Assembly (NCBI GenBank): GCA_029062165.1
Contig: JAIDQQ010000024.1
Location: 1-64,000, forward strand
Source: Ruminococcus sp.
GTDB taxonomy: Bacteria > Bacillota > Clostridia > Oscillospirales > Ruminococcaceae
Direction: 5' to 3'
Length of the DNA stretch: 64,000 nt
The notes under the pieces: model-generated
What the model was told of the DNA's origin: nothing
Seen by the model: the letters and a program-made list of their open reading frames with translations, nothing else
Database searches by the model: none
Made by a program: the position numbers and the translations under genes
In this document: positions 31,768 to 33,696 of the stretch, piece after piece
Layout of the letters: the number at the start of each line of letters is the position of its first letter
How positions within the stretch are numbered: position 1 is the stretch's first letter

Positions 31768-33084
31768 TTATTCTGAATCTTCTGTGATAGTTTCTGTTTC
31801 CTCGAATCTTGTCACACGACAAAGTTCAATTCTGTGATGTTTTATTTCAAGGATTTCAATATGAAGCCCTTCGGAATCAACGGAAATTTTTTCGCTGTTT
31901 TTCGGGATATTTCCTAATTCAGCTATTACGTATCCGCCGAAAGTTTCATTTCTGTCGCTGTCGAGAGTTATTCCGAGAGTATCGCATACTTCGCCGACGG
32001 TTGCATTTCCCTGAACAGTCCACGTATTCAGACCGGTCTTCATGATTTTTTCAAAAGTTTCTACTTCGTCGTCATCAAATTCGCCGACGAGTTTTTCAAC
32101 GAGGTCAGTAATAGTAATAATACCGCTCATACCGCCGTATTCGTCGACTACCACCGCAAAATGATTATCCTTGTTTTTCTTCATGTGTGCGAAAAGTTTA
32201 TCAGCTTTCATATTTTCGTGTACAAAATACGGCACACGGACGGCGTTTATCATAATGTTTTCGTGATTTTTTTTGTCAGTACGGAAATAGTCCTTAGCGT
32301 CCAGAACGCCTATAACATTGTCGATACTTTCGCTACATACCGGAAATACGGAATGCCTTGTCCGGTGAATGATTTCTTCCCATATTTCTATACTGTCGTC
32401 AGCCCATAAGACAGAAACTTCCGTCCTGTGCGTACAAATCTGACCGGCGGTCATATCGTCGAAAGCGAAAATATTCTTGATAATACGATTTTCGTCCTCG
32501 TCGATAGCACCGGTTTCCGCACCGGCATCTGACATCATTAAGATTTCCTCTTCCGTAATAGTTTCGGCAATTTTTTCGGGATTCACTCCGATAATTTTCA
32601 GTATACTACATGAAAGAATATTCATTAACGAAACAAATGGTCTGAAAACTACAGAAACAATTGTAAGTAATCCGGAAAATCTAAGTGCAGATTTTTCGGG
32701 ATTATTCGCCGAAAGACGTTTAGGAATAAATTCCCCGAAAGTCGTCATAAGAAAAGTTGTTACCAGTAAAATGACAGTCACTGAAACGAATCCGGCAATA
32801 TTTTCCGGTATTTTTTTTTCAAGGATTTCTGTAAATTTTCCGGAAAAATTCAGAACAGCTATTCCGACGGAAACAAATTCGGAAAATTTTACGGCTGTCT
32901 GTGAGGACTGTAGAAAATAATCGGGACTATCAGCGAGTTTTTTAAGTCTCTGTGCCTTTTTACTACCGTTTTCAGCGAGTTTTTCAAGTCTTGAATCGTT
33001 CAGGGAAATAAGTGACGTTTCGGCAATCGTGATGACCGCACATATAATAATAAATAAAATTTGCAGAATTATCTGCCATGACAT
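31768..33084 (-). CDS. CNNM/CorC-type membrane protein (HlyC/MpfA-like)
   Basis: The 438 residues have an N-terminal DUF21/CNNM domain with several membrane spans (about 1-25, 60-80, 90-115, 135-155), two CBS domains at about 215-335 (CTHRTEVSVLWADDSIEIWE and VVVDEYGGMSGIITITDLVE), and a C-terminal CorC_HlyC domain. Family members are linked with magnesium export and homeostasis. The start is preceded by GGAGG, which is complementary to a leader sequence; see the leader entries. Confidence 0.88.
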   Translation of the reverse strand: MSWQIILQILFIIICAVITIAETSLISLNDSRLEKLAENGSKKAQRLKKLADSPDYFLQSSQTAVKFSEFVSVGIAVLNFSGKFTEILEKKIPENIAGFVSVTVILLVTTFLMTTFGEFIPKRLSANNPEKSALRFSGLLTIVSVVFRPFVSLMNILSCSILKIIGVNPEKIAETITEEEILMMSDAGAETGAIDEDENRIIKNIFAFDDMTAGQICTHRTEVSVLWADDSIEIWEEIIHRTRHSVFPVCSESIDNVIGVLDAKDYFRTDKKNHENIMINAVRVPYFVHENMKADKLFAHMKKNKDNHFAVVVDEYGGMSGIITITDLVEKLVGEFDDDEVETFEKIMKTGLNTWTVQGNATVGEVCDTLGITLDSDRNETFGGYVIAELGNIPKNSEKISVDSEGLHIEILEIKHHRIELCRVTRFEETETITEDSE

Positions 33085-33094
33085 AATTAAAAAC

Positions 33095-33142
33095 CTCCGT
33101 TATAAAAATTTAAAAATAGATTACCGATTTTATTTAACGGAG
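33095..33142 (-). promoter_or_regulatory. Anti-Shine-Dalgarno pairing in the CNNM leader
   Basis: On the minus strand CTCCGTTA (33142-33135) is the exact complement of TAACGGAG (33102-33095), which contains the ribosome site of the CNNM gene. The 5' arm begins six bases after the stop codon of the leader peptide. A ribosome ending there would cover the arm and free the site. Confidence 0.6.
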
Positions 33143-33147
33143 CATAT

Positions 33148-33186
33148 TTAATTATCGGGAATACTGCCGTCGGGGGCATTTTCCAT
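33148..33186 (-). CDS. Leader peptide MENAPDGSIPDN
   Basis: A 12-codon frame ten bases after GGAGG, downstream of a consensus promoter and 63 bases before the CNNM gene. It contains Glu, two Asp and two Pro, a composition that in the known mgtL-type leader peptides weakens the translating ribosome when magnesium is low. Its position suggests regulation of the transporter. Translation is inferred from the start and ribosome site. Confidence 0.6.
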   Translation of the reverse strand: MENAPDGSIPDN

Positions 33187-33221
33187 GTATTTTTCACCTC
33201 CGGAAAAAATAAGTTTAATAT

Positions 33222-33250
33222 ATTATATACTATATAGCATTAAATGTCAA
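33222..33250 (-). promoter_or_regulatory. Consensus promoter of the leader-CNNM unit
   Basis: TTGACA-N17-TATAAT, exact; transcript start expected near 33214, giving a leader of about 130 nt. Confidence 0.85.
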
Positions 33251-33284
33251 GCAAAGGCTCTTACCGAAAATAATAAAAAAGTTC

Positions 33285-33322
33285 AATCCCCGAAACAATT
33301 ATTGATAACTGCTTCGGGGATT
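33285..33322. terminator. Terminator of the small-gene array
   Basis: AATCCCCGAA and TTCGGGGATT pair perfectly around a 18-base loop, with T-rich flanks on both strands. Confidence 0.7.
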
Positions 33323-33333
33323 ATTTTTAACAT

Positions 33334-33696
33334 TCAATTACTTCTATGAATATAATCGGAATATCTTTTATAAATTTTTCTTAGATATAAATTTGCCTGC
33401 TCTTTATAAGTTGAATCCTTGTCTGCAAGATATGTTTCAGATGTTTTTTTCAGATAGTTTAAAAACTCCTGCATTGGTACAAACAAATCCGGTGGGTCAT
33501 AGTCATTGTAGAAACCAACACAGTCAGAATATTTTTTCTTATAGCAATCCTCTCTGTCAGGATTATCAGGAAATTCAATCATTATTTCACCATGCTGTAA
33601 ACCAATTCCTTCTGAAAACAGTTTAAGACCATATAAGAAATTACGTTTACTTCTCATACATAAAAGGGATAAATAATGGTGCATTTTATTATACAT
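33334..33696 (-). CDS. Small unknown gene, cassette 1
   Basis: A 120-residue soluble protein (DCVGFYNDYDPPDLFVPMQEF, then Tyr/Lys-rich helices). The style resembles polymorphic-toxin immunity proteins, but I cannot name a family. It is the last of three small genes behind the MFS gene and is preceded by a decayed copy of the MFS 3' end. Confidence 0.65.
   Translation of the reverse strand: MYNKMHHYLSLLCMRSKRNFLYGLKLFSEGIGLQHGEIMIEFPDNPDREDCYKKKYSDCVGFYNDYDPPDLFVPMQEFLNYLKKTSETYLADKDSTYKEQANLYLRKIYKRYSDYIHRSN

What the first reader, a model, noticed from the sequence alone, without database searches (positions are those of the whole stretch)
33095..33250. Leader peptide with acidic and proline codons plus a perfect anti-SD arm before a CNNM/MpfA-type gene
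Seen: an exact consensus promoter, a 12-codon frame MENAPDGSIPDN with a strong ribosome site, and CTCCGTTA placed six bases after its stop that complements TAACGGAG at the start of the transporter gene. Known: mgtL-type leader peptides with acidic and proline residues make ribosomes fall off at low magnesium, and CNNM/CorC family proteins are linked with magnesium export. Inferred: full translation of the leader at high magnesium would cover the anti-SD arm and open the transporter ribosome site, while early drop-off at low magnesium would leave it closed. That logic suits an exporter and would be a translation-level magnesium switch.
Basis: partly seen in the sequence, partly recalled or inferred. 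Interest (0 to 1): 0.78.

Follow-up and report, generated by a model that had tools for sequence, protein, structure and literature searches.

The report
Acidic leader peptide controlling ion transporter
A tiny acidic peptide encoded just before a CNNM-type ion transporter gene in Ruminococcus looks like a sensor that lets the cell make the transporter only when ribosomes can finish the peptide, probably when magnesium is plentiful, and relatives across the Clostridia carry the same kind of sensor with a different off-switch.

Summary
In detail: minus-strand consensus promoter, leader MENAPDGSIPDN*, and CTCCGTTA five bases after its stop, complementary to TAACGGAG at the CNNM gene's ribosome site. 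Comparison widens it. In Ruminococcus 75 of 83 orthologous CNNM genes pass a leader rule (controls 9 of 511 genes), at CNNM identities down to about 50%. Outside the genus the APDGS core is lost, but acidic, often Asp-Pro-rich leaders remain (MDDGDSNAP, MDDSPLPER, MADPDPDRT): 35 of 88 under a strict rule against 3 of 511 controls. Outside the genus 55 of 61 leader loci have a terminator-like hairpin before the gene; in all 53 with a strong one the leader stop lies in, past or within 12 nt of it. So translation of an acidic leader seems to gate the gene, through a terminator in most relatives and through a ribosome-site-hiding arm in the window's clade. Magnesium-sensitive ribosome drop-off, as in MgtL but with opposite sign, is the best mechanism; the magnesium response and the substrate are untested. 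New variant of a known kind; no prior report in the listings of nine literature searches.

The parts
33222..33250 (-). Promoter TTGACA-N17-TATAAT, exact consensus
   Evidence: 12 of 12; kept in 11 of 11 window-clade orthologues
33196..33201 (-). Ribosome-binding site of the leader (GGAGGT)
   Evidence: sequence
33148..33186 (-). Leader ORF MENAPDGSIPDN* (acidic/proline peptide, proposed sensor)
   Evidence: leader rule met upstream of 75 of 83 genus CNNM orthologues
33135..33142 (-). Anti-ribosome-site arm CTCCGTTA, five bases after the leader stop
   Evidence: kept or changed together with the site in several relatives
33094..33102 (-). CNNM ribosome-binding site with flank, TAACGGAGG, complementary to the arm
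31768..33084 (-). CNNM/CorC-type membrane transporter gene, 438 aa (CNNM + CBS + CorC_HlyC domains)
33284..33323 (-). Terminator-like hairpin just after the upstream ORF (33696-33334, minus); not part of the switch
   Evidence: pattern match

Best explanation
The leader is a nascent-peptide sensor that gates a CNNM exporter-type gene by whether ribosomes finish a short acidic/proline ORF. When ribosomes are stable (ample Mg2+, possibly also polyamines) they complete the leader, keep the CTCCGTTA arm away from the CNNM ribosome site, and the gene is on. When Mg2+ is low, ribosomes fall off at the acidic/proline codons (intrinsic ribosome destabilization, as described for MgtL), the arm pairs with the CNNM ribosome site, and the gene is off. 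In most relatives outside the genus the same sensor works through an intrinsic terminator that the leader ORF reaches or overlaps; the window's clade has no strong one and uses the arm. Shown by comparison: the conserved leader frame, its acidic N-terminus, its position relative to terminator or arm, its concentration in one CNNM clade. Inferred: translation itself, drop-off, the Mg2+ dependence, its direction, and Mg2+ as substrate.
For: Genus: rule M[DE]x2-4[DEN][GV] with ribosome site in 75 of 83 orthologues, controls 6 of 274 and 3 of 237 genes. Pattern scan of genome contigs: of 80 fetched stretches (104 found), 36 have a purine-rich ribosome site and a short frame by eye; 34 are followed by CNNM, 2 (L170, L200) end too soon to tell. 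Outside the genus: strict acidic rule 35 of 88 vs 0 of 274 and 3 of 237. Acidity survives although sequence does not. Glu replaces Asp (31 of 188 acidic codons). Terminator-like hairpin between leader start and gene in 31 of 33 family, 7 of 9 order, 13 of 15 class, 4 of 4 phylum leaders; shuffles 104/330, 22/90, 20/150, 9/40. Leader stop inside (48), past (20) or at most 12 nt before (7) the hairpin in 75 of 75 strong cases, 53 outside and 22 in the genus. Leader labels 77 of 97 on one side of the CNNM tree, 2 of 22 on the other. Arm-site match own 15.36 vs swapped 13.76 +/- 0.26, 0 of 300. Precedents seen as passages: MgtL (PMC11282234), mgtQ (PMC8092293), CorC N-terminus and YoaL (PMC12421838).
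Against: No experiment. Drop-off on these peptides is not shown; genus leaders have mostly two acidic residues in positions 2-8 (strict rule 1 of 83), and PMC11282234 says di-acidic residues alone do not suffice. With one row per ribosome-site class the arm-site covariation weakens (83 of 2000 swaps as good); singly, 31 of 71 genus arms reach 5% against shuffles. Modelled opening is small: median unpaired probability of the ribosome site 0.21 free, 0.285 with a ribosome at the leader stop, 68 genus loci; window 0.28 and 0.33. 53 of 88 orthologues outside the genus miss the strict rule; 8 of 83 in the genus miss the loose one. In the genus only 27 of 74 leader loci pass the terminator test. An in-leader mini-hairpin also looks constrained (1 of 500 swaps as good), so part of the conservation may be RNA. 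Some genes on the other side of the tree may also have a leader (L260, L296 by rule; L321 by eye). Substrate unproven.
Confidence: 0.58

Rival explanations
1. Leader-translation-dependent attenuator without a specific ion signal: it reports general translation (initiation, ribosome supply, coupling to RNA polymerase, as in pyrBI-type attenuation), and the acidic residues only weaken translation.
For: The geometry (leader stop in, past or just before the hairpin, 75 of 75 strong cases) needs only translation, not an ion. Genus leaders have few acidic residues (strict rule 1 of 83).
Against: A general reporter does not need an acidic N-terminus kept across families without sequence similarity (35 of 88 vs 3 of 511), nor concentration in one CNNM clade (77 of 97 vs 2 of 22).
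Confidence: 0.22
2. An RNA-level sensor: the leader RNA (mini-hairpin in codons 3-8, or the downstream hairpin) binds a metal or a protein directly, and the ORF is incidental.
For: In the genus the two halves of codons 3-8 match better than swapped ones (own 10.59, swapped 9.40 +/- 0.41, 1 of 500 over 39 distinct pairs). Codons ACC, GGG and TGT replace GCC, GGC and AGT in many leaders.
Against: No Rfam match in the window; in 11 relatives searched only two tRNAs. Outside the genus that sequence is gone, while an acidic frame with ribosome site and the stop-at-terminator geometry remain.
Confidence: 0.1
3. Classical amino-acid attenuation: Asp (or Ser) codons sense aminoacyl-tRNA supply.
For: Leaders outside the genus are Asp-rich (36.8% of residues 2-8; biased upward because leaders were picked for acidity).
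Against: Glu replaces Asp freely (position 2: D 37, E 13 of 61), also in the window itself. A stall at codons 2-8 would leave the terminator free; a link of CNNM to Asp is not known to me (recall).
Confidence: 0.03
4. Chance: a short ORF and an 8-base complement with no function.
For: TAACGGAG is common in the window (4 hits, 1.25 expected; 3 of 100 shuffles had as many), and the window fold is only z -1.84.
Against: Leader in 75 of 83 orthologues against 9 of 511 control genes.
Confidence: 0.02

Closest known systems
MgtL leader of mgtA (E. coli), intrinsic ribosome destabilization
   Same: Short leader ORF with an acidic/proline start (EPDP in MgtL) upstream of an Mg2+ transport gene; completion versus drop-off decides expression (passages of PMC11282234).
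   Different: MgtL serves an importer, is read by a Rho-dependent terminator, and drop-off turns the gene on. Here the gene is CNNM, the readout is an anti-ribosome-site arm or an intrinsic terminator, and drop-off is predicted to turn it off. Homology of the peptides was not tested.
mgtQ upstream of mgtB (Salmonella)
   Same: 8-codon ORF; Asp2 and Glu5 reduce its translation; acts on a downstream ribosome site by stem switching (passages of PMC8092293).
   Different: There abortion of the small ORF favours the open ribosome site of an importer; here abortion is predicted to close it.
CorC (YbeX) N-terminal destabilizing sequence and YoaL leader of MgpA (YoaE), Salmonella/E. coli
   Same: Proposed control of CorC-domain Mg2+-tolerance proteins by ribosome destabilization or a leader peptide, higher at high Mg2+ (passages of PMC12421838).
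   Different: CorC carries the sequence in its own coding region; YoaL overlaps mgpA and its signal is unknown. Neither is described there as a terminator or arm-based leader of a Clostridia CNNM gene.
pyrBI-type attenuators (recalled, no call)
   Same: A leader ORF runs into an intrinsic terminator, so that translation suppresses termination.
   Different: There the signal is UTP-dependent polymerase pausing; here the acidic start of the peptide is the likely sensor.

Membership tests
Intrinsic-ribosome-destabilization leader (MgtL-like) | Short ORF with ribosome site and acidic/proline N-terminus before an ion transport gene | tested here: met
   translation itself is inferred from ribosome site and kept frame
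Intrinsic-ribosome-destabilization leader (MgtL-like) | Ribosomes drop off at the acidic codons, more at low Mg2+ | not testable with these tools
   needs in vitro translation or toeprinting
Intrinsic-ribosome-destabilization leader (MgtL-like) | Downstream gene responds to Mg2+ through the leader | not testable with these tools
   needs reporters
Leader-ORF-dependent transcription attenuator (relatives) | Terminator-like hairpin between leader start and gene, reached by the leader ORF | tested here: met
   55 of 61 leader loci of the family, order, class and phylum sets; stop in, past or within 12 nt of the hairpin in 53 of 53 strong cases outside the genus
Leader-ORF-dependent transcription attenuator (window) | The same in the window's own leader | tested here: not met
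   no passing hairpin in L005; in its clade of 11 only weak ones in L010, L011, L012 (-9.0 to -10.4 kcal/mol)
Translation-level arm switch | Arm complementary to the gene's ribosome site, covarying in relatives | tested here: inconclusive
   0 of 300 swaps as good over 62 distinct pairs, but 83 of 2000 with one row per site class
CNNM/CorC transporter family | CNNM transmembrane, CBS and CorC_HlyC domains above Pfam cut-offs | tested here: met
Mg2+ exporter of the MpfA/CorB kind | Mg2+ export | not testable with these tools
   sequence match to the solved chain 7m1u_A, 'Hemolysin, contains CBS domains' (E 7.8e-35); the best NCBIfam equivalog is PaeA, below cut-off
M-box or other known riboswitch | Match to an Rfam model at its gathering score | tested here: not met
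   window: none; 11 relatives: only two tRNAs

The most novel reading that the evidence does not exclude
A Clostridia-wide system in which an acidic nascent peptide senses cytosolic Mg2+ (or total cation) through ribosome drop-off and switches a CNNM exporter on at high Mg2+. The sensor was kept by charge while its output was exchanged during evolution: intrinsic terminator, anti-ribosome-site arm, or overlap with the transporter start (L074, L083, L085), and in other CNNM genes possibly an acidic start of the transporter itself (MDSDGS in L092, L094).
Probability: 0.45. Interest if true: 0.8.

Novelty: new variant of a known kind. Interest (0 to 1): 0.68.

Why it matters
Mg2+ sensing by nascent-chain ribosome destabilization is described, in the passages seen, for importers in enterobacteria, and proposed for CorC proteins there. 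Here comparative evidence points to the same principle, with the sign reversed from MgtL, on a CNNM gene across a large Gram-positive class, with a natural series of exchanged outputs. It would suggest that 'can the ribosome finish an acidic peptide?' is a general cation gauge, and it offers dozens of natural peptide variants with which to learn which acidic/proline sequences make ribosomes let go. It also makes the control of CNNM/CorC proteins directly testable with reporters.

Tried and rejected
Known RNA family: none in the window; in 11 relatives only two tRNAs. A family-wide nucleotide pattern search matched 13 of 297 genomes; 3 of these are in the window's genus (5 of the 297 are), the 10 others were not followed up, so it says little about the peptide. 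A loose terminator rule was dropped because 116 of 274 and 120 of 237 control genes also passed; the rule is narrower and has only a shuffle control. Amino-acid attenuation was rejected on the Asp/Glu exchange. The expectation that arm and terminator exclude each other in the genus was not borne out (Mann-Whitney p 0.09). Ribosome-footprint modelling gave little opening at the leader stop. PMC2965389 (passages) has no mention of magnesium, hemolysin or CBS in its main text; PMC10987492 (one passage) only cites a review on destabilization.

Rows dropped before counts. Orthologue sets used the stronger matches. Family: 42 scored; 34 weaker rows and G125 (N-terminus missing, L315) not scored. Order: 29 loci fetched, 14 in the set, 15 in the distant set; 7 rows not fetched. 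Class: L269-L294 and L313 scored, L295 and L296 put in the distant set, L314 and L316 fetched but not scored, other rows not fetched. Phylum: 5 of 5. One search left out L078, L081, L295 and loci with under 40 bases between leader and gene; part D and one search also left out L293, L260, L296. One search left out L078, L081, L074, L108 but kept two doubtful frames (L062, L079). One search scored 71 genus loci (L062, L070, L086 could not be scored); searches left out a few more. L109 repeats L084.

Doubtful picks kept in counts: L078 and L081 in the 69; L022 in the 75 (by eye no leader); L113, L115 and L313 among the leaders. In the tree labels I set L078, L081, L293 and L295 to 'none' by hand as frames of an upstream gene; keeping L293 and L295 would make the 2 of 22 into 4 of 22. 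L321, which lies on that side, has an acidic frame and hairpin by eye but failed the ribosome-site rule. Fisher tests treat related genes as independent, so their p values are too small and are not used.

Full report
WHAT IS THERE. The gene is on the minus strand, 33084-31768, 438 aa, with CNNM, CBS and CorC_HlyC domains above the Pfam cut-offs. Upstream, after a terminator-like hairpin (33323-33284) behind the previous ORF, lie an exact-consensus promoter (33250-33222), a leader ORF with a GGAGGT ribosome site (33201-33196) encoding MENAPDGSIPDN* (33186-33148), and CTCCGTTA (33142-33135), the reverse complement of TAACGGAG (33102-33095) at the CNNM ribosome site. The genus is Ruminococcus by inference: contigs of same-genus handles have the same lengths as named records, for example G062:C1 (379,736) and R. 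flavefaciens MA2007, or G047:C5 (263,177) and R. flavefaciens ND2009.

GENUS. One search covered 100 genomes of the genus. All 82 with a strong orthologue (E 1e-84 or better), plus one, were read upstream. A rule M[DE]x2-4[DEN][GV] with a ribosome site is met by 75 of 83 (L022 probably by chance), against 6 of 274 genes in 400 kb of the own genome and 3 of 237 genes in about 400 kb of relatives. A second rule (at least two Asp/Glu in residues 2-8, no Lys/Arg) gives 69 of 83, two of them chance frames (L078, L081), against 3 of 274 and 11 of 237. Among 58 distinct leaders residue 2 is D or E in 57, residue 6 D in 55, residue 7 G in 54, residue 5 P in 42; the window's Glu2 is one of three. A scan of genome contigs for the core codons found 104 stretches, 80 fetched: 36 have, by eye, a purine-rich ribosome site and a short frame, 34 of these are followed by CNNM and 2 (L170, L200) end too soon to tell; the other 44 look like chance hits, mostly inside long frames. 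Eight of eight paralogous CNNM genes of the genus that were looked at fail the second rule.

BEYOND THE GENUS. At 37-48% CNNM identity the core APDGS is lost, but an acidic N-terminus with a ribosome site often is not: MSDDADCSTD, MEDSDNNTD, MDDGDSNAP, MDGDDPCSN, MDSDSSDNPD, MDDSPLPERS, MSDSSDSDSEPPSP, MADPDPDRTNTPGP, MSADGDPDR, MRENYDPEPPN. Under a strict rule (at least three Asp/Glu in residues 2-8, no Lys/Arg in 2-7, ribosome site 5 of 6) 35 of 88 orthologues of the family, order, class and phylum sets pass, against 3 of 511 controls; with a ribosome site of 4 of 6, 50 of 88 against 11 of 511. Of 17 more distant CNNM genes (33-36% identity) 1 passes the strict rule. In a tree of 119 CNNM proteins the leader labels fall 77 of 97 on one side of a branch (SH-aLRT 95, quick method, midpoint root) and 2 of 22 on the other; two further picks on that side (L293, L295) were set aside by hand, and L321 there has an acidic frame by eye. 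The leader is concentrated in that clade, not strictly confined to it.

THE OUTPUT. Between leader start and gene, a hairpin of at least 7 pairs and -9 kcal/mol followed by a U-tract is present in 31 of 33 family, 7 of 9 order, 13 of 15 class and 4 of 4 phylum leaders, against 104 of 330, 22 of 90, 20 of 150 and 9 of 40 shuffles; in the genus in 27 of 74 (83 of 740 shuffles). In 75 of 75 loci with a hairpin of -12 or better, 53 outside and 22 in the genus, the leader stop lies inside (48), past (20) or at most 12 nt before (7) the hairpin. A ribosome that finishes the leader would therefore sit on the terminator; one that falls off early would leave it free. In the window's clade (11 rows on one branch, support 100) only weak AT-rich hairpins pass, in 3 of 11 (-9.0 to -10.4 kcal/mol). 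Instead CTCCGT is kept and pairs over 6-8 bases with the ribosome site in 11 of 11. In L005 and L008 the arm lies outside the 12-codon ORF; in L006, L007 and L009-L015 the ORF reads through it. Elsewhere in the genus arms differ together with the ribosome-site flank, for example TCCGTAAA/TTTACGGA (shuffle fraction 0.005-0.01), CCGATAA/TTATCGG (0.065), TTCCTTTG/CAAAGGAG (0.05), TCGCTTT/AAAGTGA (0.2); 31 of 71 arms reach 5%. Own arm-site matches average 15.36 against 13.76 +/- 0.26 for swapped sites, 0 of 300 over 62 distinct pairs; with one row per site class 13.28 against 12.3 +/- 0.5, 83 of 2000. The covariation is likely, but not beyond relatedness.

MECHANISM. A leader whose first residues are acidic, in front of a cation transporter, whose completion would open the gene, fits ribosome drop-off as the sensor. 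PMC11282234 (passages) describes that when Mg2+ is limiting ribosomes dissociate on the EPDP motif of MgtL, that early acidic residues matter, and that a proline may be needed. PMC8092293 (passages) reports that Asp2 and Glu5 of the 8-codon mgtQ are required for control. PMC12421838 (passages) argues that CorC is likely upregulated at high Mg2+ because its N-terminus carries such a sequence, and that the leader YoaL may act likewise on MgpA. The predicted sign here is the same: exporter on at high Mg2+. This step is inferred. Against it stand the lack of any measurement, the few acidic residues per genus leader, an extra RNA constraint inside the genus leader, the small modelled opening of the ribosome site by a ribosome at the leader stop (median 0.21 to 0.285 over 68 loci; window 0.28 to 0.33, at best 0.55), and an unsettled substrate (PaeA, a polyamine exporter, is the nearest NCBIfam equivalog, below cut-off).

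NOVELTY. Nine searches of the held open-access library listed no leader peptide for a CNNM gene in Clostridia. I saw titles and abstract starts only, and the lists were cut (at 20 of 41,894); papers outside that library were not seen. The principle is known from enterobacteria, so this is a new variant: CNNM gene, Gram-positive class, intrinsic terminator or anti-ribosome-site arm as output, sign opposite to MgtL. The comparative observation is strong; the ion specificity is the open step.

Noticed in passing
L092 and L094, start of the CNNM gene (about 30% identity to the window's): A third CNNM type of the genus starts MDSDGS in its own reading frame (2 of 3 seen; the third, L093, starts MSIDEG), as if the sensor were built into the transporter.
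   Followed up: partly
CNNM genes outside the genus: TTG is the commonest start codon picked for the transporter outside the genus (20 of 27 class, 22 of 42 family, 8 of 14 order), and 13 of 27 class-level proteins have two or more Asp/Glu in residues 2-6. Starts were picked by rule, not proven.
   Followed up: partly
window 33180-33162 and genus relatives, leader codons 3-8: A mini-hairpin UGCC-N6-GGCA (or shifted ACCC-N5-GGGU) inside the leader codons varies together (1 of 500 swaps as good); purpose unknown.
   Followed up: partly
L074, L081, L083, L085: Short leaders (MEGGTDGG, MDGVPDGS) overlap the CNNM start codon, suggesting direct translational coupling as a third output.
   Followed up: no
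genus relatives such as L023, L025-L029, L032-L034: Hairpin GGCATGGTCTGCACT...GGCTGTGCC (close variants) is kept with a poor U-tract, as if a terminator were being lost; the leader stop TAG lies in its 3' half.
   Followed up: partly
window 33272-33370, L002, L003: The hairpin region upstream of the promoter has 80-84% similar copies elsewhere in the genome, perhaps a short interspersed repeat.
   Followed up: no
L164 (JAMPEF010000070.1): The record is titled Alistipes senegalensis, but its contig length equals G078:C93, placed in the Ruminococcus genus group, and it carries the Ruminococcus leader and an 85% identical CNNM; the title is probably wrong or the bin mixed.
   Followed up: no
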